A DNA stretch of 64,000 nt from Lachnospiraceae bacterium AB2028 (GTDB lineage Bacteria > Bacillota > Clostridia > Lachnospirales > Lachnospiraceae). The DNA is taken from assembly GCA_000621425.1 (NCBI GenBank), contig JHYJ01000009.1, forward strand, positions 62,001 to 126,000. Reading direction: 5' to 3'. The position numbers and the translations under genes were made by a program. Positions 15,337-51,732 of the stretch are shown here, one piece after another; the first letter of the stretch is position 1, and each line of letters begins with the position of its first letter. The notes under the pieces were generated by a model. It saw nothing but the letters and a program-made list of their open reading frames with translations. It did not search any database and was not told the origin of the DNA.

Positions 15337-15353
15337 AGGACAAATTTATACCT
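15337..15353. promoter_or_regulatory. AAATTT-centred dyad operator, site b
   Basis: AGGAC-AAATTT-ATACCT, about 155 bp before the HTH gene at 15509. It has one half-site of each type. Read on the minus strand it is nearly identical to the plus-strand copies before 8228 and 27490. Confidence 0.65.
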
Positions 15354-15414
15354 ATACAGCCCAAATTGTCTGCTAAGATGTGATCATAAGAGTAAAAATG
15401 GTTTTAATCTTGAA

Positions 15415-15431
15415 AGGGTTAAATTTGTCCT
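15415..15431. promoter_or_regulatory. AAATTT-centred dyad operator, site c
   Basis: AGGGTT-AAATTT-GTCCT, 77 bp downstream of site b and about 78 bp before the HTH gene start. Two sites in front of the only small HTH gene of the module could mean that this gene is the autoregulated regulator. Confidence 0.65.
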
Positions 15432-15508
15432 TATAACAATAGTGGCTACAGGTTATTATGGGACAGGATCCGATAAAAAGAACGAATGATCAGAGGAGGA
15501 AAACAGTT

Positions 15509-15961
15509 ATGGAGAACAGAGATTGTATGATGTATTTATCGCTGGATGATATGAAAAAACTGGGTAAGTGTTATCAGTCCTCAAAGAATGGGCCGGTGCT
15601 GAGACTTAGGGGGGTGCTGGTAGAGGCTATGAAAAGAAATGGAATAGCCACACAGGCACAGTTGTGTGCAAAAACGGGCACCAGGATAACTGAGACACAT
15701 CTGAGTAAATTACTCAAAGAGGGTACCACAAGAAACCGTGATGTGCTTTGGGTGTTGGCATTGGCCCTGCATATGGGGATCGAAGAGACCGAACGGCTTT
15801 TTAATTCAGTCGGTCAGAGCATAAACCCTTGTATAAGCAATGCAGTGTCTGACAGAGAGCGTCTTATCAAAACATTTATATCCATCAGGGGGCGAGACTG
15901 GGATATTGAGGACCTGGATGAGGAATTGGCTAAAAGAGGCATGCAAAAAATCTGTCAGTAA
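15509..15961 (+). CDS. Small helix-turn-helix (Cro/XRE-like) protein
   Basis: A 150-residue protein. Residues about 38-90 (LRGVLVEAMKRNGIATQAQLCAKTGTRITETHLSKLLKEG...) read as an XRE-like HTH, followed by a helical segment typical of these proteins (VLWVLALALHMGIEETERLFNSVG). The C-terminal 40 residues (ISIRGRDWDIEDLDEELAKRG) are unassigned. The ATG at 15509 has AGAGGAGGAAAA about 9 bp upstream and is chosen over a more distal start at 15458. It is the first gene of module 1 and has two copies of the dyad in its leader. It is a candidate regulator of the module, competing for that role with the WYL protein at 33819. Confidence 0.7.
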   Translation: MENRDCMMYLSLDDMKKLGKCYQSSKNGPVLRLRGVLVEAMKRNGIATQAQLCAKTGTRITETHLSKLLKEGTTRNRDVLWVLALALHMGIEETERLFNSVGQSINPCISNAVSDRERLIKTFISIRGRDWDIEDLDEELAKRGMQKICQ

Positions 15962-15974
15962 TAAAGTTTCCATT

Positions 15975-15989
15975 TTTCCATTATGGAAA
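15975..15989. repeat. TTTCCATTATGGAAA palindrome, copy 1
   Basis: An imperfect palindrome (one central mismatch) 185 bp before the gene at 16174. An identical 15-nt sequence is at 23804-23818 inside a terminator stem. Here there is no GC-rich outer stem or T-run, so it may be an operator. The rest of the 212-bp gap (15962-16173) holds a short GCTGC/GCAGC hairpin near the gene start and nothing else I recognise. Confidence 0.45.
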
Positions 15990-16173
15990 TATTAGGCACT
16001 GTTTTCTGTAGTATATTAAAAATGCAGATCACTTATGGCAGGATGACTCAGATGTGAAAAAAGGTAAGGACTTGCCAAAGTGAAAATATGCGAAGCAATT
16101 ACAGCCCTATAATGGGGATATAGAAATACGCTGCGAGATTGCAGCATCAAAAACAAGAGGATGAACAAAAATT

Positions 16174-17199
16174 ATGATGCGAGTAAGAGTTACAAAGGAG
16201 TTACTTGGAGGAGTTAGCACAGATAAGTTTGCTTTAAGCGGATCATTCTCTTTTTCAGAGATGATGGCAATGAAGGCGAGGGGCGAGGAGGCGTTTTATT
16301 CCCTCGAATATGTTTCTGAGATCCGAAGGGACGGGAAGACCATCGTTGAGCGCGGAAATAGAATGCTTAAGCAGTTTAAGGATTATCTTGAAAAAGAGAC
16401 TGGCGAAAAGCTTGACTTCCAGGAGGATTATGCAAATGCAAAAAACTGTGTAAGCCTTTTTGAACAGGTGAAGGAAAAGCTTGATGGAAAAAGTTATGAA
16501 ATTGTTTACGACACGGAGCCCGGTTCCCGTATTTTAAAGGACATTCCATACGAGGAAGTAGCAGGTAGTGAGTTATACAAAAAACTCAGAAAGATGATAT
16601 TAGTGGATGGGATGAAGCAGATTGAACTAAGCGCAGGCCCTGATCGCGATGCACAAGTTGTGGCTAAAACTGCCATTCGTCTTGCAAACGAACTGGGAAA
16701 TATCGGATGCGTGGATAATTTCAATGTAACAGAGTGCTGTGAAGTAGTCTCATTTCACCCTGGATATACATATGAAACGTTTATGGAAAAAACGGAAAAC
16801 TTGCGTGCATCAAAGGAATCTGTAAGGCATGATGCACTTAACCAGACTTCCAAGCTTGTAAGAATAGACGGGGTTCTGAAAGAATTTTGTAATTTTGCAG
16901 CTTTATGTCCGAAAAAGCCCTTTGTTCTTGTGATTGACAACTTTGATTCCGTTAATCTTCAGGAGGTCTTTGGCGAGGCTTTAACCTGTCTGTATCCAGA
17001 GTACCGTGGGGGAATGATTAAGGTCAGGACTATGCTTCAGTCATATTCGTGGTTTAACAATACAGATAACAAGCGGAATCGTGATATGTTTGAAGAGGGT
17101 TTCTATATTCCGACGAACGTAATAATCATTGGTATTGACAGGAGCAGCAGAAACCTGACAGTTCCGGCAGGTACCTTTGAGCTGTTACAGCTGGACTAA
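16174..17199 (+). CDS. McrB-like AAA+ domain protein that has lost Walker A
   Basis: A 341-residue protein with a tentative match to the McrB GTPase subfamily of AAA+. The stretch VVSFHPGYTYETFME near residue 190 resembles the VTFHxSYSYEDF segment of McrB. FVLVIDNFDSVNLQEVFGEALTCL near 248 resembles the FVLIIDEINRGNxxxIFGEL Walker B region but with D-N instead of D-E. YIPTNVIIIGIDRSSRNL near 308 resembles the IPxNLxIIGTMNTADRS sensor region but lacks MNT. Where Walker A should stand (near 150) there is SAGPDRDAQVV, without GKT. It is therefore probably a non-hydrolysing relative. It begins an operon with the CbbX-type ATPase downstream and may be its partner or scaffold. The assignment rests on motif order read by eye. 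Confidence 0.5.
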   Translation: MMRVRVTKELLGGVSTDKFALSGSFSFSEMMAMKARGEEAFYSLEYVSEIRRDGKTIVERGNRMLKQFKDYLEKETGEKLDFQEDYANAKNCVSLFEQVKEKLDGKSYEIVYDTEPGSRILKDIPYEEVAGSELYKKLRKMILVDGMKQIELSAGPDRDAQVVAKTAIRLANELGNIGCVDNFNVTECCEVVSFHPGYTYETFMEKTENLRASKESVRHDALNQTSKLVRIDGVLKEFCNFAALCPKKPFVLVIDNFDSVNLQEVFGEALTCLYPEYRGGMIKVRTMLQSYSWFNNTDNKRNRDMFEEGFYIPTNVIIIGIDRSSRNLTVPAGTFELLQLD

Positions 17200-17216
17200 A
17201 GACTTGTGCTGTGGGC

Positions 17217-17253: not shown

Positions 17254-17284
17254 ATAAAAAAGTGAAAAACGAGGAGAGAACGAT

Positions 17285-19249
17285 ATGGAAAAGTTTCAGA
17301 TGATAAAGGCAGATAAGCATGTGAAGATGATAAGCTACCCCGGCGGAAGTCAGGCGGAGCGTGCAGAGTACTTTACCTTAACGGATATTGATAAGACTAA
17401 GCTTCAACAGGATATAAGGAAGGGTGCGGTTTTTTTGGAGGGTGTTGACAGTCTCCTTAAGGAAAAGCGTATGCCGAAAGTTGTTTATATACATGCAGGT
17501 ACTGAGGAACTGGGACTGATCGCCTTAAACTGGATTGAAAAATCGTTAAAAAAGGATGACGACTGTTTCGAATATGATCCTGAAGATTTTGACGGCCTGT
17601 TTGACGACGAAGAGGACGAGGCATCGGATGACGTTATGGAAATAGAATATGGAACCCCTTGGGGCTTTATAGCAGAAGACCCCAGCCAGGTGCCGCTGAT
17701 CCCCTGGGATGAAATTGTTTCATATTTCAGGGATGATGATTCGGATTCAGTTGGGATATTTGGGGGAAACGCATTCCGCTTTGCAAAGTCTGGGGAAACC
17801 CAGGAGCCTTACTGGACGCATTGCAATACAAACCCGGTCTGCATCGTACAGAGCGGTTATGAAGATTTTCTGATAAAGCCTTCGGTAATGGAACAGTTTA
17901 AAGATAACAGCAGAGTGTACATTCTGCGGATTGATCCTCTGCTTCGGAATATGTTTAACACTGTGGAACTGGATTCCTGTGATGATGATGATTTTCCATT
18001 TGGCTGCGAAACAACAGTCGCAGGTGAGAATATGCGGAAAACAGTAATAATGTGTAATGCTGACTATGTAAAGATCAGTATGGATGAGGATCAGACTAAA
18101 AGGTACTATACAGAAGTATTAAAGCAGATCGTATCAAATTATAAATTCAGGCTGGATACAAAGATAAATAAGGACGAGCTGGTTGATTGTCTGATGAATC
18201 TCTGCAACGATCCCCTTGGGAACCCGGAGTGCTCATGCGGTGATTTCATTGAAAAAGCACTTTGTCATGTAATTGAACGAAAGAAAAAGGGCAAAGTGAT
18301 AAAGGAGGGGGATCTCCGTTATATCCTTTCGGAGCGGGACGACAAAAAGAAAGGTAATGTCCGCGGATGGGAGAGACTGGACAAGGAACTGATCGGAATG
18401 CCCGTCATAAAGAAGCGCATACGCTCAATCGTCAATAATTTTAAGTTTGAAAAAATCCGTGCTGAAAAAGGGCTTTCCTCACTGGGGTATCACAATGTTT
18501 ATATGATGCTTGGCGCACCGGGAACAGCCAAAACAACAGTGGCTCAGATCCTTGGTGACATCATGACTGAGGAAAAGCTACTGAGTGGCAAACGTTTTAT
18601 AAGTATAAACGGTGCAGAACTTAAGGGAAAGTATGTCGGATGGACTACAGACAAGGTTAAGCAACTTTTTTCCCAGTATGACATCATCTTTGTAGATGAG
18701 GCATATTCTCTAGTAAGCACTAGTGGAGATTCGGATGAATTTTCCCAGGAGGCGGTAGCACAGCTTTGCATAGAGCTTGAGAAACACGCCCAGGACCGTC
18801 TTGTTATCTTTGCAGGATACGGTGGTGATGATGTGGGGGAGAAGAGTAACCTGATGAAGCACTTTCTGGATTCCAATCCGGGTATTACGAGCCGCATAAA
18901 TTCCACTATCTTTTTCCCATCTTATACACCGGATGAGATGGTGGAGATCTTCCACAAACAGGCTGATATAAAAAAGATCAGCATGGACCGACAGGCGGAT
19001 GAGGAAGTACGAAAGTATTTTGAATGGCGCAGAAAGGCAAAGGATTTCGGAAACGGACGTGAGGCGAGGTCGCTTTTCGAAGCTTCGATAATGAAAATGG
19101 CAGAGCGCATTTCTGCACATAAGGGAAAGCATTCGGTAAAGGCACTGAATACGATGACAGCAGAGGATATCCTGGGGGCACTTGAAGAAAAGCGGATGGT
19201 TGCATCTAAGCTCACAGGAAAAACTAAACCCCTTGGCTTTGTAGTATAG
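17285..19249 (+). CDS. CbbX/CbxX-type AAA+ ATPase with a long N-terminal domain
   Basis: A 654-residue protein. The N-terminal part of about 360 residues is acidic and unassigned (DDEEDEASDD near 115). The C-terminal AAA+ module resembles the CbxX/CfqX (rubisco activase CbbX, EccA-like) group. It has Walker A GAPGTAKTT near 410, the pore-loop region KGKYVGWTTDKVKQLF near 450, Walker B IIFVDEAYSL near 468, an arginine-finger region PGITSRINSTIFFPSYTP near 535 and sensor 2 GNGREARSLFEAS near 590. Such ATPases remodel protein complexes as hexamers. It shares an operon with a ClpP-like peptidase, so it could be the unfoldase or a remodelling partner. A second member of the family is at 48322 in module 2. 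The start follows GAGGAGAG. Confidence 0.85.
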   Translation: MEKFQMIKADKHVKMISYPGGSQAERAEYFTLTDIDKTKLQQDIRKGAVFLEGVDSLLKEKRMPKVVYIHAGTEELGLIALNWIEKSLKKDDDCFEYDPEDFDGLFDDEEDEASDDVMEIEYGTPWGFIAEDPSQVPLIPWDEIVSYFRDDDSDSVGIFGGNAFRFAKSGETQEPYWTHCNTNPVCIVQSGYEDFLIKPSVMEQFKDNSRVYILRIDPLLRNMFNTVELDSCDDDDFPFGCETTVAGENMRKTVIMCNADYVKISMDEDQTKRYYTEVLKQIVSNYKFRLDTKINKDELVDCLMNLCNDPLGNPECSCGDFIEKALCHVIERKKKGKVIKEGDLRYILSERDDKKKGNVRGWERLDKELIGMPVIKKRIRSIVNNFKFEKIRAEKGLSSLGYHNVYMMLGAPGTAKTTVAQILGDIMTEEKLLSGKRFISINGAELKGKYVGWTTDKVKQLFSQYDIIFVDEAYSLVSTSGDSDEFSQEAVAQLCIELEKHAQDRLVIFAGYGGDDVGEKSNLMKHFLDSNPGITSRINSTIFFPSYTPDEMVEIFHKQADIKKISMDRQADEEVRKYFEWRRKAKDFGNGREARSLFEASIMKMAERISAHKGKHSVKALNTMTAEDILGALEEKRMVASKLTGKTKPLGFVV

Positions 19250-19267
19250 GAAAAAGGAGGAAGAGTT

Positions 19268-20452
19268 ATGGAAAGGTTTGAGAAGGAAGAAATTATCAGC
19301 GTTTTACTGACTACGTTAGCAGGCGAAAGCTGTTTTGATGTGACAGGAATGGTTTTTGAACCCTTGGGACATCCGACCCTGAAACTGCTTGATCGGTTAT
19401 CCGTTGAGGCTCCGGAATTATTTAAGGACAAGGGGTTTGTGATGGACATCATAAGGATTCTTTCCGAAAAGGAACATATGGATAGCACATATGACTGTCT
19501 CTTTATGAGCATGTATGACCTGATTGGTCAGGATCGTATGGATGAATATAAAAGAAGGGTATCTGAGGATGTCTGCCGAATCACAAAGGAAATTGCCTTT
19601 TTTCTGGACTGCCTTTTTGAGGAGTATTTAGATGACTCGCTTAAAAATGACAGAGACGTAGTGCTGGCTGTTTTTGAGTACTTGGCCTATCTTGCAGAAC
19701 GCAACGGACAATATTTAGCTGTTCCCTGTATCTGTAGCGAAGTGCCACACGAACTGTTGATGGATGATGAGGTTTTCAGCCTGTTGATAAGGACTGCTAC
19801 TCCGGCAACCATATATACTTCATTACTCACAGATAAGGAAAAGCTTGATGATAACATTATCTTCAGGCTTACGGAGTGGTATGTGCTGAATAATGCATTT
19901 GAAACTTACGGAAACGATGATATCAAAAAGGATTATATGGTGCTACTCAAGGAATGGGCAAGTGCCGTATACCATGCGGCCAGGTATCCGGAAACAGACT
20001 GGCTGTATGGGGAGAAAGATCCATATACAGAGAGGGTGTTTGAATTCAAAGATATAGCGTGCAGACTGTTCCTTTGTGAGCTGAATGATCCCATAGATCC
20101 GGATATTATGCTTATGAGAGTGATACATGCTTACGAAGACTTGATGCGTAAAAAGGATGAGGAAGAGACTACAGACTTCTGCTGGTATGAGTCCTTTATG
20201 AAACTGATAGAACCTTATACGCGTCAGATACGTCTGCTGTCAGCTGTTACTCTGAATGATGAGTCGTTCTTTTATGCCGTAAATAAAGTTGCACTTGGTG
20301 AACCATTGGATCTGGATGATGATATCGCAGGGGATGGGCAGAATGATGGGAAGCCTTCCGGGGCTTTGGAAAGTGCAGATGCAGATGATGGGGACGCCGG
20401 CTTTATGAATATTCCGGGGTGGAACGATGATAGCCAGATTCCGTTCAGTTGA
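19268..20452 (+). CDS. Unknown helical protein with SSB-like acidic IPF tail (paralogue of the gene at 26027)
   Basis: A 394-residue, acidic, mostly helical protein that I do not recognise. It is paralogous to the product at 26027: VPHELLMDDEVF...TPATIYTSLLTDKEKLDDNIIFRL here aligns with VPNEVLMDNGIF...SPMEIYNGLLTDAEKQDKNIICRL there. Both end in the same pattern: FMNIPGWNDDSQIPFS here and FMNLPDGCDDGIPFA there. The acidic residues followed by (I/L)PF at the extreme C-terminus resemble the tip of bacterial SSB, which recruits DNA-repair proteins, although one extra residue follows Phe here. It lies 18 bp after the AAA+ gene with a strong AGGAGGAAGAG ribosome binding site. Confidence 0.7.
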   Translation: MERFEKEEIISVLLTTLAGESCFDVTGMVFEPLGHPTLKLLDRLSVEAPELFKDKGFVMDIIRILSEKEHMDSTYDCLFMSMYDLIGQDRMDEYKRRVSEDVCRITKEIAFFLDCLFEEYLDDSLKNDRDVVLAVFEYLAYLAERNGQYLAVPCICSEVPHELLMDDEVFSLLIRTATPATIYTSLLTDKEKLDDNIIFRLTEWYVLNNAFETYGNDDIKKDYMVLLKEWASAVYHAARYPETDWLYGEKDPYTERVFEFKDIACRLFLCELNDPIDPDIMLMRVIHAYEDLMRKKDEEETTDFCWYESFMKLIEPYTRQIRLLSAVTLNDESFFYAVNKVALGEPLDLDDDIAGDGQNDGKPSGALESADADDGDAGFMNIPGWNDDSQIPFS

Positions 20453-20474
20453 TATAAGAAGGAGGAAAATAAAA

Positions 20475-20867
20475 ATGAGAACTGATGAAAGGTTTTGGAT
20501 AGGCGAAGTGGGACCTTTAAGAAAAAGACGGGCGGCTTTGGAGATCATACGAAGTGCTGTTGGTTCAGGCTTTGATACATTTGAAAAACTGTCAGAGCTG
20601 CTCAAACCTGTTTCAAAAGAATTTAGGGAGCTTCCTTTGATAACGGATAGTATAAAAGGAAATTCTGCGGACAGGTATTTTATAAATCATCCGCTCATGC
20701 TTGAAGAAAAGCTGTACTATGTCAATAAGCAGTGGGACAGAGGAAAATCATTTGATGAGCTGGTAAGGGTTGCAATAGAAGAGCTTGAGTGCGATGTCTG
20801 TGAAGAAATACCTTATGATGAGCTTACGAATGAGGGCAAGGCATTGCTGGAGAGGATGATGCAGTAA
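20475..20867 (+). CDS. Hypothetical protein, 130 aa
   Basis: Not recognised. A small charged helical protein (RTDERFWIGEVGPLRKRRAALEIIRSAVG...), acidic at its C-terminus (CDVCEEIPYDELTNEGKALLERM). The ATG at 20475 has GAAGGAGGAAAA upstream and is chosen over an in-frame start at 20427 that overlaps the previous gene. It lies inside the module 1 operon between the SSB-tail protein and a small membrane protein. Confidence 0.65.
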   Translation: MRTDERFWIGEVGPLRKRRAALEIIRSAVGSGFDTFEKLSELLKPVSKEFRELPLITDSIKGNSADRYFINHPLMLEEKLYYVNKQWDRGKSFDELVRVAIEELECDVCEEIPYDELTNEGKALLERMMQ

Positions 20868-21137: not shown

Positions 21138-21707
21138 ATGGTAATCAATCCTATAGTAACTGATGAAAGAGGCAGAAGTAACGATATTTTTTCAAAGAAC
21201 CTGGAGAACCGTGTGATCCACCTGGTGGGTGAGGTGACGGATGAGATGTCAGCATCCATAACGGCACAGCTCCTTCACCTTGCTGCGGTTTCCGATGAGG
21301 ATATCCAGCTCTATATCAATTCTCCGGGTGGATCGGTGTCAGCGGGGCTTGCAATCTACGACACAATGCAGTATATCAAGCCGGATGTGGCTACGGTGTG
21401 CCTCGGCAGGGCGGCAAGCATGGGTGCTGTCATTCTCTCAGGCGGAGCAAAAGGAAAGCGTGCGATACTGCCTCATGGTGAAGTAATGATACATCAGCCA
21501 TCAGGTGGCATGGAAGGACAGGCAACGGAACTGGTCATAGCGGCAGAGCATATCAAGGACACTAAGCAGATCCTGAATGAAATCCTTGCCCAAAATTGCG
21601 ACAAGGATATCAAAAAGATTGCCAAGGATACCGACAGGGATCACTGGATGCGTGCAGAAGAGGCAGTAGCTTATGGTGTGGCAGATATGGTGCTTAAAAA
21701 CAGCTAA
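21138..21707 (+). CDS. ClpP-type serine peptidase (accessory copy)
   Basis: A 189-residue S14 peptidase with all key features: NSPGGSVSAGLAIYD near residue 56, catalytic Ser in GRAASMGAVIL (about 95), catalytic His in MIHQPSGG (about 119), the IAAEHI handle region and catalytic Asp in KDTDRDHWM (about 168). The N-terminal region (NPIVTDERGRSNDIFSKNLENRVI) differs from the housekeeping VPxVIExTxRGERxYDIYSRLLKxRII form, and no clpX or trigger factor gene is adjacent. It is therefore probably a second, module-specific ClpP that works with a Clp chaperone or the CbbX-type ATPase of the operon. The PARG-like gene starts at its stop. Confidence 0.9.
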   Translation: MVINPIVTDERGRSNDIFSKNLENRVIHLVGEVTDEMSASITAQLLHLAAVSDEDIQLYINSPGGSVSAGLAIYDTMQYIKPDVATVCLGRAASMGAVILSGGAKGKRAILPHGEVMIHQPSGGMEGQATELVIAAEHIKDTKQILNEILAQNCDKDIKKIAKDTDRDHWMRAEEAVAYGVADMVLKNS

Positions 21708-21721
21708 TGGAGAGAATTGTG

Positions 21722-22465
21722 ATGGATAGAAAAGAACAGAGAAAAGATGTTGCAGAACGTCATACATGGGAAATGGAAAGGCTGTATTCAGATGAAATCA
21801 GTAAGTGCGTAGTGGGAACAAAACTGTATGATGTAGATTTTGAACGGGGAGACAAAATCGGTGGGAAGGCTGTGTTTACTTTGGAACAGTCCTACACCCA
21901 GGACAGTATTTTTAAGAATGCGGGAAAAGGAAAAGTGGCTGTCTTGAACTTTGCGAGTTACAGACATGCCGGAGGCGGATTTATCAGGGGCTCTATGGCT
22001 CAGGAGGAATCGTTATGCCATGATTCTTTTCTTTATAATGTACTCAGTAAGTTTCCTGAATATTATGAATGGAATGAGTCGCATCTGAACAAGGCACTTT
22101 ACCGCAACAGGGCGCTTTATTCACCTGATGTATGCTTTTTTCCAAAGAAGGGTGAATCTGTGAGCGTAGATGTGATCACCTGTGCAGCGCCGAACCGTTC
22201 ACAGATATCTCGTAATGCATTGACAGAGGAGGAAAATGAAGAAGCGTTGCGGGATCGGATTCGGTTTATCCGTGATATATGTGATACGGAGGGTGTGGAA
22301 ACATTTATCACAGGAGCCTTTGGCTGCGGTGTGTTTGCCCAGAAGCCTGAGATCGTAGCAACGTTGTTCCGTGAGTACTTCGGCGATACCAAGGTAAAAC
22401 AGGTCATATTTGCTGTCCCTGCGGATCGTAATTACCCTGCTTTTGAGAAGGAATTTTCAGGCTAA
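21722..22465 (+). CDS. Microbial-type PARG / TIGR02452 macrodomain hydrolase
   Basis: A 247-residue protein of the DUF2263/TIGR02452 family, related to bacterial poly(ADP-ribose) glycohydrolase. The catalytic signature GGGFIRGSMAQEESLC (near residue 79) fits the GGG-x6-8-QEE loop of PARG, in which the second Glu is catalytic. VAVLNFASYRHAGGG, VDVITCAAPNRSQ near 145 and FITGAFGCGVFAQKPEIVA near 197 fit the macrodomain ADP-ribose pocket. It probably removes ADP-ribose from a target or cleaves ADP-ribose chains. The start at 21722 has GGAGAG at 21709-21714; an in-frame ATG at 21707 overlaps the clpP stop. A terminator follows, which closes this operon. Confidence 0.85.
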   Translation: MDRKEQRKDVAERHTWEMERLYSDEISKCVVGTKLYDVDFERGDKIGGKAVFTLEQSYTQDSIFKNAGKGKVAVLNFASYRHAGGGFIRGSMAQEESLCHDSFLYNVLSKFPEYYEWNESHLNKALYRNRALYSPDVCFFPKKGESVSVDVITCAAPNRSQISRNALTEEENEEALRDRIRFIRDICDTEGVETFITGAFGCGVFAQKPEIVATLFREYFGDTKVKQVIFAVPADRNYPAFEKEFSG

Positions 22466-23878: not shown

Positions 23879-23896
23879 AGGGATAAATTTATACCT
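23879..23896. promoter_or_regulatory. AAATTT-centred dyad operator, site d
   Basis: AGGGAT-AAATTT-ATACCT, about 100 bp before the DUF4116 gene. A possible -10 (TAATAT) lies 14 bp further on. Confidence 0.65.
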
Positions 23897-23997
23897 ATAG
23901 GGACTACTGTAATATTGTACGATGAGGTTACAAAGAAAGGTGTAAGTAACCAGGCAAACTGCAGAACAATGGAAAAATGTGATGGGAGGATGTGGAT

Positions 23998-43913: not shown

Positions 43914-45203
43914 CTAAACTGTGGGCGCCTTTACATCCTTATAATATCTATATGCGCACTCAAGATTTTCCCGTACATTCAGTGCGGCTTTGAGTGCAAT
44001 CGTGTTTTTGACATCAGGTGAAGAAAGTATGATCACGTCCCTGCAGTACTCAGTTGCAAAAAGCACTATTCCGTTGAATGTAGATTTTACCTTTATGACA
44101 ACCCACTCATCCTTGGTGCCGGGGTCTATATTGCATGATTCAAGTACATCCTGTCCGGGCTTTCGTGTGGAGAGATTCCGTCCGAATACATCCACTATGG
44201 TATTCATCATATTGGGATTGGATGCATTGACCAGAAGTTGAAAGGTTATAGGTTTACCCGCATACATCACAGGATGCTTACTGCGGTATTCTGATTTGGA
44301 GGTGCTTACCTGGTCGGCTTCCGTACCGGAATAGCCTGAGTATTCCTTGAGCTCGTCTTCCTTTGCATCCACCGGATCTATGGTATCCATACGGTCTATA
44401 CGGAGATTTTGTACGTTATCGTGTTCTTTTATTCCTACGATACAGTAATAAAAACCGTTGCTCCATATTATCTTCAGGGGGCGCACTTTTTTTGGCTTTT
44501 CATATCCGGCCTTGGGAACAAGTTTTAAATTTGCATCATAAGTGCAGTAAGTTATTTCGGCTAGCTGCCTGTTTTTTATGATGTGTGCCAGATCGCTTAC
44601 ATGGCTTAGCACAGTAGTGTCGCTGTCTTTCAATTCCCTGTCTATTGATGTGGGCAGGTATGTAAGGAATTCATTGGATAGTGGTCTTATAGAACCCAGC
44701 TTGGCAGAGATTTTCTTTATATCATCCACAGCAAAAAAATTGTATGTTTCTATGGCATCATACAGAGTCTTTAATTCACTCTCAAGGATTGTAGATTCAT
44801 AATAGTAGAGCTTGTTTCTTTCACTGACTTTGGATCCTTTTTTGTCTTTTTCAGTTATGTCCGATACATTTACGTACTCTATGGTGCCGTCTTTTTTAGT
44901 GGTGGCTACTACGCAGCGCAAATAGAATCCGGCGTTGAAAGTATCGCTGATATCTTCGGGCTCTGTCAGCTCATAAATGTCGTTTCTTCTGAACAGGTCT
45001 AAATAGTTATCATCCATCAGTGCGGACAGCATTTTGCTCACTGTAGTATGTGCAATGGGAGTTCTGTTAAAAGGAATATAAAAAGTTTCGTTAAGTTTGT
45101 CGGTGATCTGCTGTAGGGTAAGCGGGTTATTTCGATCACTGTAATTTTTCAGCGTGAGTATCAGATAAAGTATATTGTTTCTTGATGATTCTGTTTTGGG
45201 CAT
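43914..45203 (-). CDS. WYL-domain transcriptional regulator (module 2)
   Basis: A 429-residue protein with the same plan as the one at 33819: an N-terminal winged HTH (ILYLILTLKNYSDRNNPLTLQQITDKL, TTVSKMLSALMDDNYLDLF, residues 8-75), a WYL domain near 215-290 (AEITYCTYDANLKLV, VRPLKIIWSNGFYYCIVGIKEH, LRIDRMDTI) and a WCX-like C-terminal part. It is divergent from the module 2 operon. The gap holds a perfect 22-bp palindrome (45271-45292) close to its own start and an AAATTT-type dyad (45348-45363) close to the operon. It is therefore a strong candidate for a local autoregulated regulator. Confidence 0.88.
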   Translation of the reverse strand: MPKTESSRNNILYLILTLKNYSDRNNPLTLQQITDKLNETFYIPFNRTPIAHTTVSKMLSALMDDNYLDLFRRNDIYELTEPEDISDTFNAGFYLRCVVATTKKDGTIEYVNVSDITEKDKKGSKVSERNKLYYYESTILESELKTLYDAIETYNFFAVDDIKKISAKLGSIRPLSNEFLTYLPTSIDRELKDSDTTVLSHVSDLAHIIKNRQLAEITYCTYDANLKLVPKAGYEKPKKVRPLKIIWSNGFYYCIVGIKEHDNVQNLRIDRMDTIDPVDAKEDELKEYSGYSGTEADQVSTSKSEYRSKHPVMYAGKPITFQLLVNASNPNMMNTIVDVFGRNLSTRKPGQDVLESCNIDPGTKDEWVVIKVKSTFNGIVLFATEYCRDVIILSSPDVKNTIALKAALNVRENLECAYRYYKDVKAPTV

Positions 45204-45270: not shown

Positions 45271-45292
45271 TGATGTGCAATATTGCACATCA
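45271..45292. promoter_or_regulatory. Perfect 22-bp palindrome in the divergent WYL/operon gap
   Basis: The core is TGTGCAATATTGCACA (45274-45289) and the symmetry extends by three bases on each side without mismatch. It lies 67 bp upstream of the WYL gene start. The same 16-bp core occurs at 54837-54852, which makes a protein binding site likely. Confidence 0.75.
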
Positions 45293-45347: not shown

Positions 45348-45363
45348 GGGACAAATTCGTCCT
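45348..45363. promoter_or_regulatory. AAATTT-centred dyad operator, site f
   Basis: GGGAC-AAATTC-GTCCT. It is the most symmetric of the six sites (AGGAC-type halves on both sides) and lies 81 bp before the first gene of the module 2 operon. Confidence 0.65.
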
Positions 45364-45444
45364 GATTCATCAATGGTTTCTCTGGTATTGTGATGATATA
45401 GACAGTGTGAGAACGGTAATAGAAGAATGAAAGGGAACGATGAT

Positions 45445-46872
45445 ATGGCTATAAGTAAGGAGCTAATAAACCTAAAAAATGGGGAGTCGGCTGTGATTTC
45501 TCCAGAAATAGAAGAGAAACTTCGTGAGATAAAAAGACATCCGGAAGCCTATAACGTAGGGAAGACTCTTAACGGGCTTAAGCAGAAAAAGGCAGCCGGT
45601 AAGCCCTGCCCGAAGGACCTTATATGGGTTGCTGAAAAAAAGGGTCGTGACTATTTTTGCGGTGAAATAATGGAGGAAGTTTCCATATGCTGTATGACAC
45701 CGATGGTATTTGCAGTTCTGACTGATCCTGAGGGACTGATTCCCTGGATGCTTAAGACTATTAAGGACAGGTCAGTAGAGGACTTTGATGCGCCGGTTTT
45801 CTATAGGATTAGTGAAGATTCTTCTGATGTTTGCGCAGCTGACATTTTTGCGTCTGCTGATGATGGGGAATCCTCATCACACAAAAAGGATTCATCAGAA
45901 GGGGGGGTGATATTTGAACAGATCCCCTGTTTGGTTGATCCCTGTGCAGCCATATTAGGTGCTTATTTTGCGGACCAGAATAATGAAATTACGCTCTGGT
46001 ATTCACTGTTGAAAGCATATGGAAAGGGTAGGTCAAAGAATTGGTTATCCATTTTGCCAATAGTGCAGGAGCTTTCGGGGAACTTTTCCTTCTATCTGCG
46101 TTTTCCGGTTCTGTCAGCACGTGCTGATACAGGAAAGATGGTGGATCTTTTGCTTTATATTAAAAGGCGTGACAGCAACGTGTATGCGGAAATGATGTCT
46201 CCATATGTTTACCTGTCGGTTCTGATATGCGGTCTCGATGCCTGCGATGATAGGACAGCTTTCATAGCTAGTATGAAAAAGCTGTATCTTGAGGAATTTG
46301 GTGTCGAGAACCTGTTTTGGGATATCATGCTGAAAAAAAGGGCATGTCAGAATAATGATATGTTCATGAGCAACCCTTTTGGATACCATGATCAGAATCT
46401 AACATACTCCGAAATGTGGAAAAGGATCACCGGGCGTCAGCTTATCCTGGATGCAGATGAGCTGGACTTGACCGGTATGTATCAGAACTATGATGATCCC
46501 TTAGGTCAGATGCCTCCTTTTGGAGTTTCTAATTACGAGCAGGTGACTGATGACGGGAGGCTCACGGGTTTCCTTCTTATGGACCTGATCAGAAATTCAG
46601 ATATGGCAGTATATGGAAAACACTCAAGAAAAGCCGTGTTTGATGTTGAACATATACTAAAGGAGGGAACGGAAGAATTGGTATTGATGGCGCTTAGGAA
46701 AGACTTTATCCGAAAGGACGATATGGATGAGTGCTTTAGGTACATAAAGGAAATAGGAAGATGTGGCATAGCACCGGCGCTGGTGCTTAAGCAGAATGAC
46801 GAGTGGCCTGCATATGGGGAAGGCGGCAGGGGGGAAAAGCCTGCAAGAAGACGGAGGAAATGTCATGATTAA
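45445..46872 (+). CDS. Unknown protein of the MoxR/VWA operon, 475 aa
   Basis: A 475-residue protein that I do not recognise. It is soluble and mainly helical, with a Cys-containing stretch (YFCGEIMEEVSICCMTP, near 70), a low-complexity acidic Ser-rich part (SADDGESSSHKKDSSEGG near 140) and a very basic end (RGEKPARRRRK). The segment LVLMALRKDFIRKDDMDECFRYIKEIGRCGIAPALVLK (near 415-455) resembles the C-terminal part of the protein at 50051, a helical hairpin of the GFIxKxNxDxCI type. A G7 tract is at 45901-45907. The ATG at 45445 follows AAGGGAA; the ATG at 45427 is an alternative. It is the first gene after dyad site f. Confidence 0.7.
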   Translation: MAISKELINLKNGESAVISPEIEEKLREIKRHPEAYNVGKTLNGLKQKKAAGKPCPKDLIWVAEKKGRDYFCGEIMEEVSICCMTPMVFAVLTDPEGLIPWMLKTIKDRSVEDFDAPVFYRISEDSSDVCAADIFASADDGESSSHKKDSSEGGVIFEQIPCLVDPCAAILGAYFADQNNEITLWYSLLKAYGKGRSKNWLSILPIVQELSGNFSFYLRFPVLSARADTGKMVDLLLYIKRRDSNVYAEMMSPYVYLSVLICGLDACDDRTAFIASMKKLYLEEFGVENLFWDIMLKKRACQNNDMFMSNPFGYHDQNLTYSEMWKRITGRQLILDADELDLTGMYQNYDDPLGQMPPFGVSNYEQVTDDGRLTGFLLMDLIRNSDMAVYGKHSRKAVFDVEHILKEGTEELVLMALRKDFIRKDDMDECFRYIKEIGRCGIAPALVLKQNDEWPAYGEGGRGEKPARRRRKCHD

Positions 46873-48307
46873 AAGGCGATATCGTAAGGAACTGACACCT
46901 CTTAAATCGAGGAATGGTGCTGTCCGGGATGCAAGGGAAAAGATAGAAGGCGTAAAGCGCCGGATAAAGCGAAATTATCCTGCGCTTGTGGAAGCTGTTA
47001 ATTACCAGGAACCGGCAGCTGTGGAAGAGGATATAAAAGGGTTATGCACTGACGGAAAGCGGCTGTTTTTTAATCCTAAAGACGTGTTGGAAAGAACGGA
47101 TGAAGGAATGCTGTATTTTCAGATACTGCATATCATATTTCATGGTCTTTTAGGCCATTTTGAAAAAGGCTCGGCCTATGACCACAGGGCACTATCCTGG
47201 GATGTAATGGACCTGCAGGTGATGCGGGCGTTTAATGAATCCGGAATATCAACTGCTGACATGGAGCGTTATGACAATATTTTTTACGGATTTCCTGATG
47301 TAAGGGGAATGTTTGCTGATGAAAGCGGCTTTTCCCTGTACTACAAAGCAGTAAAGGATCCGACGGTTCAGATAAACATAAAGCGGAAGATAAAGAATAT
47401 AAAAAGGAATATTCCGTTGGCAGGATTAGATGATCATACCACATGGGCTTTGCCAAGACTGGAGCTGAAGGTTCAGCAATTGCCGACTGCAGGATTAAAC
47501 GGAAATAAAAATGGAGCCGGCGGCTGGAACCAGATAGTGATTTCACTTACAGGGGCAGGGATTAATGGCATTATGGGCTTAAGTCCCGGCGATTTAGAGA
47601 AAGCCATTGCAAGGGCCATAAGAAATTCCGGTATGAAATGCTGGGGCAAGGGTTCAGGAGGCCAGGCCGGAGAAGAGGTCATGGCGGATGATGAAGCGCT
47701 TATGGATTACAGGGAGCTCATAAAGGAAGCTGTGTCCAAGACGGAAGTCTGTAGGGAGTCTGAGGAACTGGATCCTGCACTTTATGAGTACGGACTTGAG
47801 CTGTATGGGGATGTACCTATCATAGAGCCGCTGGAACAGAAATACGAAAGCAGGATTTCGTCAGTAGTGATAGCCATAGATACCAGCGGTTCGTGTATGG
47901 ACAGGCTAAAGGATTTCTGGACTGAAACCCTGGAGATCTTCCGGGAGATATCCACGCAGGCTTCCATAGACAGGCTCCATTATCTGGAATGTGATGCGGA
48001 TATCAACGAGGAAAAAGAGTATACGTCCGTAGAAGAGCTGGGCTTGTCCGGAAATAGGTACCACAGTTTCAAAGGCTATGGCGGGACAAGCTTTGTCCCG
48101 GTATTTGAGAAAGCCCGGGAGTATGAAGAAGGTGGGGAAAAGATCGATTTCATGGTCTATTTTACCGATGGCGAGGGGGATTATCCTTTCGGTGATCCAG
48201 GCTTTCCGGTGTACTTTGTTTTTTCGGATAAAGAGGATGTGGAAAATACAGACAGCTACAGGCCGGAGTGGATAAGGACGATGGTGCTGGACAGCGCAGG
48301 AAGATAA
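46865..48307 (+). CDS. VWA domain protein of the DUF2201 type
   Basis: A 480-residue protein. The N-terminal region has LHIIFHGLLGHFEKGSAYDHRALSWDVMDLQVMRAF (near residue 90), which aligns with the metallopeptidase-like start of DUF2201 (AHEVLHLALGH), but the catalytic Glu of HExxH is replaced by Ile. The C-terminal part is a von Willebrand A domain with the MIDAS motif VIAIDTSGSCMD near 336 and GYGGTSFVPVFEKA near 405 and FMVYFTDGEGDYP near 430. In this family VWA proteins work with MoxR AAA+ ATPases, one of which is encoded 2 kb downstream. The start at 46865 overlaps the previous gene by 8 bp and has GGAGG upstream. Confidence 0.88.
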   Translation: MIKRRYRKELTPLKSRNGAVRDAREKIEGVKRRIKRNYPALVEAVNYQEPAAVEEDIKGLCTDGKRLFFNPKDVLERTDEGMLYFQILHIIFHGLLGHFEKGSAYDHRALSWDVMDLQVMRAFNESGISTADMERYDNIFYGFPDVRGMFADESGFSLYYKAVKDPTVQINIKRKIKNIKRNIPLAGLDDHTTWALPRLELKVQQLPTAGLNGNKNGAGGWNQIVISLTGAGINGIMGLSPGDLEKAIARAIRNSGMKCWGKGSGGQAGEEVMADDEALMDYRELIKEAVSKTEVCRESEELDPALYEYGLELYGDVPIIEPLEQKYESRISSVVIAIDTSGSCMDRLKDFWTETLEIFREISTQASIDRLHYLECDADINEEKEYTSVEELGLSGNRYHSFKGYGGTSFVPVFEKAREYEEGGEKIDFMVYFTDGEGDYPFGDPGFPVYFVFSDKEDVENTDSYRPEWIRTMVLDSAGR

Positions 48308-48321
48308 AGGAGGAAAGAAAA

Positions 48322-50061
48322 ATGTTTGATCTATATAAGGATTTTTACACAGGCAGGATACCCTATCTAAAGCCGGAGAACAGGTTTTTCGGGGGATACA
48401 GTGCGGAGCGGATAGTGCTTAAGAACGGCAATCAGTCCTCGTACTTTGATGCCTATTCTAAGCCGGTCGAGGAGTGCATAGTAAGGTATAGGAAGAGGAA
48501 TGACGGGCAGACCTATGATCCTGATGTACTTAATATGCGGGTTATCCTTGTCAGCAACGATGTTAACAGGGTGCGCAAGTCTGCCATGTGTCTTGCAGAT
48601 GGTGTAGAGACAGGCACATATGATGAAGAGGATGATTTTGGATATGATGACGAGGATATGGATTCACTCAGCGATATCGTAGAGATTGAATTAGGCCGTG
48701 ACCTGGCTGATGAGAGAGTGGCAGGAAATCCATACATCATCAAGACACAGACAGTGCTTGCCGGTGCGGAAGAATTCAAGGTCGGCGGGGTTCTCTTCAG
48801 GGGACTTGAGACAGGAAAACTTGCAGACCAGTGTGCAGCAATATCAGGCGTTCATAAGCAGAATGTTTTTGTGGGAATAAGTGCTGCTATGGTGGGAGTG
48901 CCTGAGATCCAGAGGCTTGTACTGGAAAGAGGCTTTGATATGGTGCGGCTTCCGGATGTGGACAGTGCATATTATAAAAAGATATCCGACGAGCTTATAA
49001 ACTACGGAGGAGTACCCTTTGAGAGTGATGCGCTGAAGGAGACTGTAATCGGCTCTGTCATAAAGAAATGCGGAAGACATATCAGCGAGGAACAGATAAG
49101 CAGGGCCCTGTCTGAAGCACGCCTTAAAATGGACAGCGGAGATGAAGTTTTTAAAGCCTGCCATTTCCCGGAGTATGTAAATACGGCTTCATACAATGCT
49201 TATGAGAAATTAAGTAAGATGACGGGGCTTGATAATCTCAAAGCTGCCGTCAAGGAATACATAGCAGTGAAGAAAGAAGCAAAGAATAATCCTAAGGCAG
49301 AGCCTGAATGCAGGCATATGATTTTTGAAGGAAATCCCGGCGGCGGAAAGACCATGGGTGCAGGAATCTTTTCAGAGATTATGGCTGCGGAAGGGATTTC
49401 TAACGGAACGTTCGTTGTTGCTTCGAGAAAAGACATCATAGGCGAGTATGTGGGGCATACTGCGCCGAAGGTTGAGAAGCTATTCAGGGAGGCTTCAGGG
49501 GGAGTGCTGTTTGTGGATGAGGCAGGGTTCTTTCTGGATGATGGCAGCGGCGGATTCGTGAAGGAAGCGATAAAGGAGTTTGTCAGGTACATGGAGCTTT
49601 GCAGGGATGTTACGGTTATTTTTGCAATGTATCCCGGAGAAACAAAGAGATTCCTTGGACTTGATCAGGGCCTATCATCAAGGATCTCTTCAACGGTCAG
49701 GTTTGATGACTATTCGGAGAAGGAACTGGCCGCTATATTCAAGGGAATGCTTGAAGATAAGGGTTATGTGGTTCCTGCAGCGATTTCCAAGAACGCCGGA
49801 ACGTTCTTAATGAAGCTGAAAGCCGAGAAAAACGGACGTTTCGGAAATGCCAGGGAAGCAAGGAGGCTGGCTGATATGGTGATTATGGCTGTTTCACTAA
49901 GGCACGAAAAAGAGTCAGCAGAAAAATGGGATGGCTGTATAAAGAATTCGGATCTGCGCGAAGCAATCAAAAAGATGGAGAAAGAGACAGCTACAAGCAA
50001 AACGGTAGACTATGGTTTTTCAAATTATAAACCGGCAGGGAGGTGCGCTAATGCTTTTTGA
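48322..50061 (+). CDS. CbbX/CbxX-type AAA+ ATPase (module 2)
   Basis: A 579-residue protein. The N-terminal part (about 1-290) is unassigned and has an acidic stretch (DEEDDFGYDDEDMDS near 95). The AAA+ module has Walker A IFEGNPGGGKTMGA near 336, the pore-loop region DIIGEYVGHTAPKVEKLF near 373, Walker B GVLFVDEAGFF near 394, an arginine-finger region GLSSRISSTVRFDDYS near 453 and sensor 2 GRFGNAREARRLAD near 506. It is the same subfamily as the ATPase at 17285, with a similar acidic N-terminal extension, so the two modules share a component type. The ATG at 48322 has AAAGGAGGAAAG upstream. Confidence 0.87.
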   Translation: MFDLYKDFYTGRIPYLKPENRFFGGYSAERIVLKNGNQSSYFDAYSKPVEECIVRYRKRNDGQTYDPDVLNMRVILVSNDVNRVRKSAMCLADGVETGTYDEEDDFGYDDEDMDSLSDIVEIELGRDLADERVAGNPYIIKTQTVLAGAEEFKVGGVLFRGLETGKLADQCAAISGVHKQNVFVGISAAMVGVPEIQRLVLERGFDMVRLPDVDSAYYKKISDELINYGGVPFESDALKETVIGSVIKKCGRHISEEQISRALSEARLKMDSGDEVFKACHFPEYVNTASYNAYEKLSKMTGLDNLKAAVKEYIAVKKEAKNNPKAEPECRHMIFEGNPGGGKTMGAGIFSEIMAAEGISNGTFVVASRKDIIGEYVGHTAPKVEKLFREASGGVLFVDEAGFFLDDGSGGFVKEAIKEFVRYMELCRDVTVIFAMYPGETKRFLGLDQGLSSRISSTVRFDDYSEKELAAIFKGMLEDKGYVVPAAISKNAGTFLMKLKAEKNGRFGNAREARRLADMVIMAVSLRHEKESAEKWDGCIKNSDLREAIKKMEKETATSKTVDYGFSNYKPAGRCANAF

Positions 50062-50473
50062 GGATGCTAATGAATTAACATTTGAGGGAGTGCTGTCAAC
50101 AGTAACGGACGAAGATGACAGTGGCCGTGTATTTGTAGATATAGATGACAAGGGTAACTACGGTTTCATACTGGCTTATTTCTATGATTCCCAATGTTTC
50201 TCTGATATGGAAGAGTTTTTTGGCCGTATCGATTATTTCAAGTCATCAGGCAAGGTACGGAAGGATAAGCTTATGGAGAAAATGCTGGATATCTGTGCAG
50301 AAAGGGATGACAGGAATGCTGAGATACGCTTCTTTAAAGATTTGTTGGCGAAGGGTTTCATAGAAAAAGCGGATACTTCCATGTGCATTAAGAAGATGCG
50401 GGCAAAAAAACGCTATCAGCTCATTCCTTTGATGGTACTTAAGGATGCAGGCGAGTTTAGTGTAAACAGCTAA
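50051..50473 (+). CDS. Hypothetical protein, 140 aa, of the MoxR/VWA operon
   Basis: A 140-residue protein of unknown function. The N-terminal half is an acidic beta-like region (VDIDDKGNYGFILAYF). The C-terminal half is helical: FFKDLLAKGFIEKADTSMCIKKMRAKKRYQLIPLMVLKDAG, which resembles the C-terminal part of the protein at 45445. The start at 50051 overlaps the ATPase gene by 11 bp with GGGAGG upstream; a longer start at 50012 would only add residues inside that gene. Confidence 0.68.
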   Translation: MLFEDANELTFEGVLSTVTDEDDSGRVFVDIDDKGNYGFILAYFYDSQCFSDMEEFFGRIDYFKSSGKVRKDKLMEKMLDICAERDDRNAEIRFFKDLLAKGFIEKADTSMCIKKMRAKKRYQLIPLMVLKDAGEFSVNS

Positions 50474-50550
50474 TCACCTTTGTAAGAATGGTTTAACACT
50501 GCGGGAAGAATGAGCGGGGCAGGGAAGATAAAGAATAAGGAGAGAATACA

Positions 50551-51732
50551 ATGGATATGAGATCAGAACAGACAAGCTATAGCGTAGCAGAGGCAAAGAG
50601 CGAGATGCTTTCGGGAATAAGGGCCTATATGTCAAAGGATAAGAAGGGAAAGTATTTTTATGATGTGATAAATAAGCTGCCTTTCTATCTAGAGGGACCT
50701 CCCGGAATAGGAAAGACTGAGATCGTTCGCCAGATCGCAGATGAGCTGGGGATCGGCTTTGTCAGTTTCTCAATAACACACCATACAAGGAATTCTATGA
50801 TAGGCCTTCCTGTAATAGAAAACCTGGAAAATGGCAGCAAGTATACTGAATATACCATGTCGGAAATAATAGCGGCAGTCCTTCGGGAAAAGGAAAAGGG
50901 AGCAAAAGAAGGAATACTTCTTTTGGACGAATTCAACTGTGCATCAGAAACTATCATGCCTGTCATGCTGGCCTTCCTTCAGACCAGGAACATAGGCCTG
51001 TATCATCTTCCTGATGAATGGGCTATAGTCCTTTGCGGTAATCCGTCTGAATTCAATGATAATGCGAAAAAGTTTTCGGCTGCGATCACCGATAGAGTGA
51101 GAAGGCTGGATATTATACCTGATACAGAGTGTTTTCTGGAGTATGCGAAGGGAAAGGACTATCATCCAATGGTCCTGAATTATCTGGAGCTTTTCCCGGA
51201 GAATCTTTATCTCGTAAAGAATGACAGGAACCGTAGTGAAACCGTCACCGCAAGGGGTTGGGAGAACCTGTCACACACCATAAAGGCGTATGAGGAATGC
51301 GGCATAGCCCTTACCCTTAAGACTATAATGCAGTTCATAAAATCCTATACCATAGCTTCGGATTTCTGGACATATTACTGGCTTAATAAGAATTCCTTCA
51401 CAGAGGAACAGATGCAGCAGGTAATAAACGGAAAGTATACTGATGATCTGGTGGAGAACTTTAAGGGCGGAAAGGTGGAATTCGTAGAGAGTGCACTTGG
51501 GATAATAGAAAAGGGCTTGACGGCAAATATTGCATACGAGACCTCCGGAACTATGTCAAAGAAGATAAGCAACGTGTTTGAATTCCTGGACAAGATTGGA
51601 ACAGGTGCAAACGGGCGCGAGAAGTTTTTCTTCTATATCACTGAGACGGATGGCCTGCTGGATGCAGTCCGCAAATCCGGAAATGCCGAGTACCTTGCAG
51701 AGGCCAGGAAGATATACGGTCTGACGGCATGA
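50551..51732 (+). CDS. MoxR family AAA+ ATPase
   Basis: A 393-residue ATPase. Walker A LEGPPGIGKTEIVRQIA near residue 48, a substrate-loop region THHTRNSMIGLPVIE near 75, Walker B GILLLDEFNCASETIMPVMLAFLQ near 120, sensor 1 AIVLCGNPSEFN near 158 and an arginine-finger region FSAAITDRVRRLDIIP near 173. The rest of about 200 residues is helical. MoxR proteins act with VWA partners to insert metals or remodel complexes, and the VWA gene of this operon is the likely partner. It is the last gene before the terminator at 51778, with AAGGAG upstream of the start. Confidence 0.9.
   Translation: MDMRSEQTSYSVAEAKSEMLSGIRAYMSKDKKGKYFYDVINKLPFYLEGPPGIGKTEIVRQIADELGIGFVSFSITHHTRNSMIGLPVIENLENGSKYTEYTMSEIIAAVLREKEKGAKEGILLLDEFNCASETIMPVMLAFLQTRNIGLYHLPDEWAIVLCGNPSEFNDNAKKFSAAITDRVRRLDIIPDTECFLEYAKGKDYHPMVLNYLELFPENLYLVKNDRNRSETVTARGWENLSHTIKAYEECGIALTLKTIMQFIKSYTIASDFWTYYWLNKNSFTEEQMQQVINGKYTDDLVENFKGGKVEFVESALGIIEKGLTANIAYETSGTMSKKISNVFEFLDKIGTGANGREKFFFYITETDGLLDAVRKSGNAEYLAEARKIYGLTA

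What the first reader, a model, noticed from the sequence alone, without database searches (positions are those of the whole stretch)
15337..51732. A two-module NTPase-nuclease-protease system with shared operator motif
Seen: module 1 (15.3-35.2 kb) has an HTH protein, a McrB-like pseudo-ATPase, a CbbX-type AAA+, a ClpP, a PARG-like macrodomain hydrolase, an orphan ParA, a DUF4116 giant, two SSB-tail paralogues, AddB/AddA-like and WYL genes. Module 2 (43.9-51.7 kb) has WYL, an unknown, VWA, a CbbX-type AAA+, an unknown and MoxR. Known: MoxR/VWA, McrB-like, WYL and PARG-like proteins recur in conflict loci. Inference: these form one regulon that senses DNA damage or invading DNA and acts by DNA degradation, targeted proteolysis and ADP-ribose removal. 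The two modules are separated by housekeeping genes (ddl, murF, plsC), which is why they may have been missed as one system.
Basis: partly seen in the sequence, partly recalled or inferred. Interest (0 to 1): 0.87.

Follow-up and report, generated by a model that had tools for sequence, protein, structure and literature searches.

The report
Split AAA+/ClpP/AddAB immunity-like regulon
Two gene clusters about 9 kb apart in a gut/rumen Lachnospiraceae genome look like halves of one machine of molecular motors, a protease and a DNA-cutting helicase, because relatives carry the same parts in one cluster and both clusters share a conserved promoter element that also marks core DNA-break repair genes.

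Summary
The gene content is as described, with corrections, and the claim that the modules belong together holds up better than expected. In relatives, genes split here between modules 1 and 2 lie in one cluster: WYL | M2b–VWA–M2e–MoxR–ClpP–CbbX–LUD–AddB–AddA (L066); with pseudo-McrB and a McrBC/LlaJI pair (G022); with PARG (G381, across a contig gap); AddA–WYL–ClpP–VWA–MoxR–CbbX (two Acetatifactor MAGs). Module 1 ClpP falls in one clade with the ClpPs of those clusters, its AddA in a clade apart from canonical AddA. Forty generic VWA–MoxR loci of other genera have no ClpP, WYL or system-type AddB nearby. Two palindromes lie at fixed distances from –10-like boxes: palB (GGAYAAATTTRTMC) before module 1, module 2, canonical addBA and sbcDC; palA (TGTGCAATATTGCACA) before module 2 and a gene at 53.8–54.7 kb. 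Nuclease cargo differs between relatives (AddAB-like, LlaJI/McrBC, ZacABC). I read it as a new variant of MoxR–vWA conflict systems: WYL-controlled, probably damage-induced, anti-invader. Defence, ssDNA sensing and a CbbX–ClpP protease docking by a C-terminal xGF tail are inferred. The modules do sometimes occur apart.

The parts
15338..15351 (+). palB site 1 (GGACAAATTTATAC); -10-like TAAGAT at 15374
15417..15430 (+). palB site 2; -10-like TATTAT at 15454, so the first gene may start at the ATG near 15509 rather than 15458 (inference)
15458..15961 (+). 167-aa putative DNA-binding protein (HTH by eye only); relative in module 1 of G003 (47%)
   Evidence: (no family)
16174..17199 (+). McrB-like pseudo-ATPase without Walker A; relative in the G022 cluster (39-41%)
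17285..19249 (+). CbbX/SpoVK-type AAA+ (M1c), Walker A/B intact, C-terminal LGF
19268..20452 (+). M1d, paralogue of M1j, SSB-like acidic tail
20427..20867 (+). 146-aa unknown; membership not supported by relatives
   Evidence: no family
21138..21707 (+). accessory ClpP, Ser/His/Asp columns conserved; clade with ClpPs of one-cluster relatives
21707..22465 (+). microbial-type PARG; a PARG lies between CbbX and AddB in G381
22999..23760 (+). ParA-type ATPase; membership not supported by relatives
23881..23894 (+). palB site before the DUF4116 gene; -10-like TACGAT at 23918
23992..25989 (+). DUF4116 repeat protein; 53% relative in module 1 of G003
26027..27352 (+). M1j, helical-repeat model with disordered SSB-like tail; G003 orthologue ends DDIPF and lies directly before ClpP
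27490..30219 (+). AddB-like with PD-(D/E)XK nuclease domain (IIDYKT)
30216..33761 (+). AddA-like UvrD helicase-nuclease, second copy distinct from canonical addA at G000:C3
33819..35183 (+). WYL regulator M1m; 79% and 70% identical in syntenic G003 and G027 loci
43914..45203 (-). WYL regulator M2a, divergent from module 2
45274..45289 (.). palA TGTGCAATATTGCACA; -10-like TATCAT 11 nt downstream
45349..45362 (+). palB GGACAAATTCGTCC; -10-like TATTGT at 45386
45427..46872 (+). M2b, unknown 481 aa, mostly helical model
46796..48307 (+). VWA protein (DUF2201), DTSGS motif present, HIIFHG instead of HExxH
48268..50061 (+). CbbX/SpoVK-type AAA+ (M2d), C-terminal YGF
50012..50473 (+). M2e, 153-aa unknown; relatives in the same cluster elsewhere
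50551..51732 (+). MoxR-like AAA+, Walker A/B intact
51989..53014 (+). GIY-YIG domain protein at the place where G003 carries ZacABC; possible cargo, but behind an inverted repeat at 51778-51824
53829..54731 (-). 300-aa unknown, likely same regulon by palA; its relatives lie inside the cluster in G022 and G006
54837..54852 (.). palA, exact 16/16, between the 300-aa gene and a 148-aa relative

Best explanation
The two modules are a split copy of one Lachnospiraceae conflict system. Core: WYL regulator, MoxR AAA+ with its VWA partner, CbbX-type AAA+, accessory ClpP and mostly helical partner proteins (M2b, M2e, SSB-tailed proteins). Cargo: an exchangeable DNA-attacking set (here AddAB-like; LlaJI/McrBC or ZacABC in relatives). 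Proposed action: ssDNA from phage replication or breaks binds a WYL regulator (inferred), which turns on palB promoters of both modules and of addBA and sbcDC (shared element shown; binding and activation inferred), while the M2a WYL protein controls module 2 and the 300-aa gene through palA (inferred). AddAB-like nuclease then degrades invading ends, MoxR-VWA loads or remodels the complex, and CbbX-ClpP unfolds and degrades selected proteins (all inferred). Shown here: gene linkage across relatives, clade membership of ClpP and AddA, promoter elements at fixed spacing.
For: Single clusters with genes of both modules: L066, L069, L070, G022 (L046/L047), G006 (L050), and G381 (L065+L158) if its two contigs adjoin. 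Control: of 40 generic VWA-MoxR loci 0 have ClpP or WYL, 0 a system-type AddB (profile of one sequence, blind to canonical AddB), 1 an AddA match, 2 weak CbbX; of 17 system loci, cut ones counted as misses, 10 have ClpP, 9 WYL, 14 CbbX. Trees: system ClpP clade of 13 rows 99/93; system AddA clade of 12 rows 100/100. Co-occurrence M2b x second AddA p 6.5e-5. palB 9 places against 1 control genome-wide; -10-like TAnnnT 22/23 nt away in 16 of 18 sites, spacings outside 20-25 mean 0.76, at most 3. palA 3 places in 3.48 Mb, 0 control. Cargo: LlaJI, Zac.
Against: No experiment. One search scanned 10 of the 19 module genes against PADLOC: strong hits only for the AddA-like protein (GajB and other UvrD-type helicases) and, as regulators, the WYL proteins (4.9e-16, 2e-10); AAA+ hits are weak (TRIP13 3.6e-8, IetA 1.5e-6), so no known system is recognised. 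G027 and G010 have the AddAB/WYL part without M2b. palB also marks addB in G009, where no second AddA was seen (72% complete), so the palB regulator may be older than the modules. The system ClpP clade includes one of G017 with no system found around it. ParA and the 146-aa gene have no linkage. The 18 palB sites include orthologues and are not independent. palA at G000:C3 may be part of a terminator.
Confidence: 0.55

Rival explanations
1. A LexA-independent DNA repair regulon, not a defence system: palB is the box of a damage regulator (PafBC/DriD-like) and the modules help repair the cell's own broken chromosomes; MoxR-VWA-CbbX-ClpP do damage-linked protein quality control.
For: palB before canonical addBA and sbcDC with conserved footprints; WYL regulators activate damage genes in mycobacteria and Caulobacter (PMC11804915, PMC10693628: search listing; PMC12340889: passages).
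Against: Patchy distribution (5 of 35 genus genomes have M2b) and differing restriction-type cargo fit conflict better than core repair.
Confidence: 0.25
2. Two unrelated accessory clusters that happen to be neighbours in a variable region and share a regulator.
For: Each part can occur without the other (G027, G010); the two sites are separated by housekeeping genes; palA is absent from module 1.
Against: One-cluster arrangements on at least five separate contigs and the ClpP/AddA clades.
Confidence: 0.15
3. MoxR-VWA-CbbX form an assembly chaperone for a metal- or cofactor-dependent enzyme, and ClpP removes failed products; nucleases are passengers.
For: CbbX remodels Rubisco and MoxR-VWA pairs act as chaperones (recalled); 160 of 299 family genomes have a VWA match, and the 40 places examined sit next to MoxR without nucleases of the system type.
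Against: Generic pairs differ from the system type (MoxR about 460-540 against about 385-435 aa; none of 40 with WYL/ClpP); I saw no conserved enzyme client in the system loci.
Confidence: 0.05

Closest known systems
MoxR-vWA-centric ternary conflict systems (PMC7159879; passages and section 21 read)
   Same: MoxR AAA+ plus vWA core, a further AAA+ in the FtsH subtype, exchangeable effectors
   Different: Here the VWA is DUF2201-type without fused C-terminal effector; second AAA+ is CbbX/SpoVK-type; ClpP, WYL and AddAB/McrBC/Zac cargo. The paper's main text holds no 'ClpP', 'CbbX' or 'DUF2201' and one 'WYL'
CoCoNuT type IV restriction (PMC11090510; passages)
   Same: McrB-like ATPases, VWA and SpoVK-type AAA+ in one operon
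   Different: TerY-type VWA, coiled-coil McrB; main text holds no 'ClpP' and no 'AddAB'
AddAB helicase-nuclease
   Same: AddB-AddA pair, PD-(D/E)XK motifs in both
   Different: Second copy, separate clade, AddA far below the equivalog cut-off (169.9 against 707.65; canonical copy 970.7)
WYL damage/defence regulators PafBC, DriD, BrxR, CapW (PMC11804915, PMC9122588: search listing; PMC12340889, PMC9122601: passages)
   Same: WYL protein beside conflict genes or controlling damage genes; inverted-repeat or positionally conserved sites
   Different: Two WYL proteins and two unlike palindromes on one split system; binding untested
ClpXP/ClpCP (recalled)
   Same: ClpP with an AAA+ partner and a hydrophobic-Gly-Phe tripeptide
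   Different: The tripeptide lies at the C-terminus of a CbbX-type AAA+, not in a loop; docking untested

Membership tests
MoxR-vWA ternary system | MoxR AAA+ encoded next to a vWA protein | tested here: met
   (in the window two genes apart; adjacent or one gene apart in most relatives)
MoxR-vWA ternary system | vWA protein with C-terminally fused effector | tested here: not met
   DUF2201 VWA domain reaches residue 498 of 503
MoxR-vWA ternary system | third component VMAP, iSTAND, FtsH pair or beta-propeller | tested here: inconclusive
   no such Pfam match above its cut-off; M2b fold search gave no clear match
McrB | NTPase with Walker A | tested here: not met
   no Walker A in 16174-17199; weak McrB profile match
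Canonical AddAB | addA_Gpos equivalog score | tested here: not met
   169.9 against cut-off 707.65; the canonical copy elsewhere scores 970.7
Canonical AddAB | nuclease motif in both subunits | tested here: met
   IIDYKT and IIDYKS
ClpP protease | ClpP family with catalytic Ser-His-Asp | tested here: met
   S94, H119 and D168 invariant in the four sequences (assignment as catalytic recalled)
ClpP-dependent unfoldase | hydrophobic-Gly-Phe docking motif | tested here: inconclusive
   residue-Gly-Phe within 18 residues of the end in 17 of 17 full-length Lachnospiraceae CbbX-type rows and both window proteins, against Gly-Phe within 20 in 7 of 135 other proteins of 300 aa or more; absent from 6 of 7 outside proteins; docking not testable
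WYL ssDNA sensor (PafBC/DriD type) | WYL domain | tested here: met
WYL ssDNA sensor (PafBC/DriD type) | ssDNA-dependent activation | not testable with these tools
Anti-phage system | protects against phage | not testable with these tools
   only indirect: cargo with Zac and LlaJI matches in relatives

The most novel reading that the evidence does not exclude
A LexA-independent, ssDNA-triggered WYL regulon puts core break-repair nucleases (AddAB, SbcCD) and a two-locus immune machine under one promoter element. The machine's CbbX-type AAA+ are a new class of ClpP unfoldase that docks by a C-terminal hydrophobic-Gly-Phe tail, with MoxR-VWA as loading factor and exchangeable nuclease cargo.
Probability: 0.25. 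Interest if true: 0.92.

Novelty: new variant of a known kind. Interest (0 to 1): 0.72.

Why it matters
It would show that an immune-type machine can be split over two loci and still be held together by a promoter element shared with core DNA-break repair, would add ClpP and CbbX-type AAA+ to the parts list of MoxR-vWA conflict systems, and gives two precise candidate operator sequences that make the regulon directly testable.
Full report
WHAT IS THERE. The window is G000:C7:62001-126000 of a 3.48 Mb genome; 16 of the 19 named relatives are Lachnospiraceae (two named Acetatifactor), the other three are Treponema with distant MoxR. Module 1 runs from 15.3 to 35.2 kb and module 2 from 43.9 to 51.7 kb, with the domains listed in the observation check. 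The genes between include ddl, murF and plsC. In module 2 the first four genes from M2b on overlap (gaps -77, -40, -50 nt), then 77 nt to MoxR; module 1 is looser.

ARE THE MODULES ONE SYSTEM? In G022 a divergent WYL gene is followed by pseudo-McrB, a 981-aa unknown, an McrB-like and a LlaJI/McrC-like protein, a relative of M1j, a relative of the 300-aa gene at 53.8 kb, then M2b, VWA, M2e, MoxR, ClpP and CbbX. G006 has the same order from the M1j relative to the contig end in CbbX, with a helicase before it. L066 has a divergent WYL gene and M2b, VWA, M2e, MoxR, ClpP, CbbX, a LUD protein, AddB and AddA on one contig. L069 and L070 (Acetatifactor MAGs) have AddA, an opposite-strand WYL gene, ClpP, unknowns, VWA, MoxR and CbbX in a row; this is one locus, not one operon. 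In G381 one contig ends inside CbbX after ClpP, and another starts with the rest of a CbbX followed by PARG, LUD and AddB; that these contigs adjoin is an inference. G003 keeps a shorter module 1 and module 2 at the syntenic sites, with different AddAB alleles; its ClpP (96% identical), directly behind an M1j orthologue, lies upstream of the glycosyltransferase genes that border module 1; ZacABC lies behind its module 2. That same-strand runs are operons is inferred from spacing.

CONTROLS. Generic VWA-MoxR pairs are common: 160 of 299 family genomes have a VWA match at E 1e-10. From the places listed there I picked 40, mostly high-ranked and on long contigs, all in other genera: none has ClpP or WYL nearby, none a system-type AddB, 1 has an AddA match, 2 a weak CbbX match. 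Of 17 system loci (own C2 paralogue plus L060-L075, 232 kb in all; cut ones counted as misses) 10 have ClpP, 9 WYL, 14 CbbX, 10 M2b, 3 AddA. These loci were found by MoxR, so MoxR is given, the neighbours are not; the profiles were seeded in part with the same loci. In trees the window ClpP groups with ClpPs of system loci, of module-1-type loci (G003, G027) and one of G017 whose surroundings show no system (13 rows, 99/93), sister to the housekeeping ClpPs (13 rows, 99/96). The window AddA groups with the extra AddAs (12 rows, 100/100), apart from the 19 canonical ones, though the window, G022 and G027 rows have long branches. In the genus M2b and the extra AddA co-occur: 5 of 5 against 2 of 30, p 6.5e-5; without the own genome 4 of 4 against 2 of 30, p 3.2e-4; M2b with the accessory ClpP 4 of 5 against 2 of 30, p 1.4e-3. 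Relatedness is not corrected and several genomes are incomplete. Of the 16 genomes of L060-L075, 12 have some AddB match, 10 at E below 1e-15.

PROMOTER ELEMENTS. palB, up to 1 mismatch, occurs at 9 places in the genome against 1 for the reversed control. Four are in the modules. The others lie before canonical addB, sbcD, a KptA/Tpt1 gene (PF01885 2.9e-46), a small putative nuclease gene (label by eye, no Pfam match) followed by an Eco57I-type methylase, and one inside an rpoD gene. The stricter form GGAYAAATTTRTMC is found without mismatch 5 times in this genome, once in G027 (module 1), once in G017 and in none of the other 32 genus genomes; the reversed control hits three other genomes once each. 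Footprints: of 23 addB upstream stretches, 3 have palB within 1 mismatch (own, G027, G009), 2 were too short, 18 have 4 or more mismatches; of 15 sbcD stretches 3 have it (own, G027, G021), 12 have 3 or more (two of these shortened). In alignments palB stands out from diverged flanks. In 16 of 18 sites a TAnnnT hexamer begins 22 or 23 nt downstream, against a mean of 0.76 and at most 3 at spacings outside 20-25. The sites stand for about ten independent promoters, and two (G003 module 1, L070) were admitted by position with more mismatches. This puts the centre of palB near -42, the place of a class II activator or of a -35 substitute; a repressor is not excluded. DriD, a WYL activator, is described with a positionally conserved site (PMC12340889, passages).

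palA is an exact palindrome at 45274 and 54837; the genome has one further place with 1 mismatch, 78 nt before addB, which may be part of a terminator stem. System loci hold 25 palA matches within 2 mismatches in 725 kb (loci partly overlap) against 1 in 785 kb of control. TAnnnT lies 10-11 nt from palA in 14 of 28 site-directions, at most 4 at other spacings. Module 2 thus seems to have two promoters, one per palindrome. That M1m reads palB and M2a reads palA is my inference from which gene sits where.

HOW IT MAY WORK. See Best explanation. MoxR and both CbbX-type AAA+ keep Walker A and B, and the nuclease motifs of AddA/AddB are present; pseudo-McrB has no Walker A. ClpP keeps its Ser, His and Asp. 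All 17 full-length CbbX-type rows examined, and both window proteins, end with residue-Gly-Phe within 18 residues of the C-terminus, including paralogues that are not next to ClpP; Gly-Phe within 20 residues of the end occurs in 7 of 135 other proteins of these loci. Of seven outside relatives that I picked, Rubisco CbbX, a SpoVK of Paenibacillus (identified) and four others lack it, one of Selenomonas has it. ClpX uses such a tripeptide in a loop to dock ClpP (recalled). This is a lead, not a test. The SSB-like tail of M1j is on a disordered end of a helical-repeat model; the orthologue of G003 ends exactly in DDIPF.

NOVELTY AND SCORE. The core logic resembles MoxR-vWA conflict systems, so I call it a new variant. 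The searches named in Tried and rejected found no description of this combination in the held library, which lacks most subscription papers. Interest 0.72: strong linkage and regulatory evidence, weak functional evidence.

Noticed in passing
L172 (G027:C59), L174 (G003:C3), L173 (own C2:175001-190000): Another cassette, MoxR(about 366)-unknown-VWA(about 390-410)-ClpP(192)-TraG-like(451), in L172 twice; L174 has one such set plus a further ClpP-TraG pair, the own genome a ClpP-TraG pair.
   Followed up: no
L053 (own C2:411001-431000): Paralogous locus MoxR-VWA-WYL-SF2 helicase-unknown-CbbX-...-ClpP-TraG-ClpA-like in the same genome.
   Followed up: partly
L054-L058 (own genome): Five further SpoVK/CbbX-type paralogues, each with a C-terminal IGF or VGF.
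   Followed up: partly
L059:7703-8725: KptA/Tpt1 RNA 2'-phosphotransferase gene with a palB site 10 nt upstream of the ORF as called.
   Followed up: partly
L180:7585-14044: palB before a small putative nuclease, an Eco57I-type methylase and a 1006-aa weakly McrB-like protein: possible restriction locus in the same regulon.
   Followed up: partly
G000 genome: Six ClpP-like places in one genome.
   Followed up: partly
L066:13769-14407, L158:2800-3516: LUD-domain protein before AddB in two clusters.
   Followed up: no
window 51778-51824: Inverted repeat (23-nt arms, 91%) between MoxR and the GIY-YIG gene, likely a terminator.
   Followed up: no
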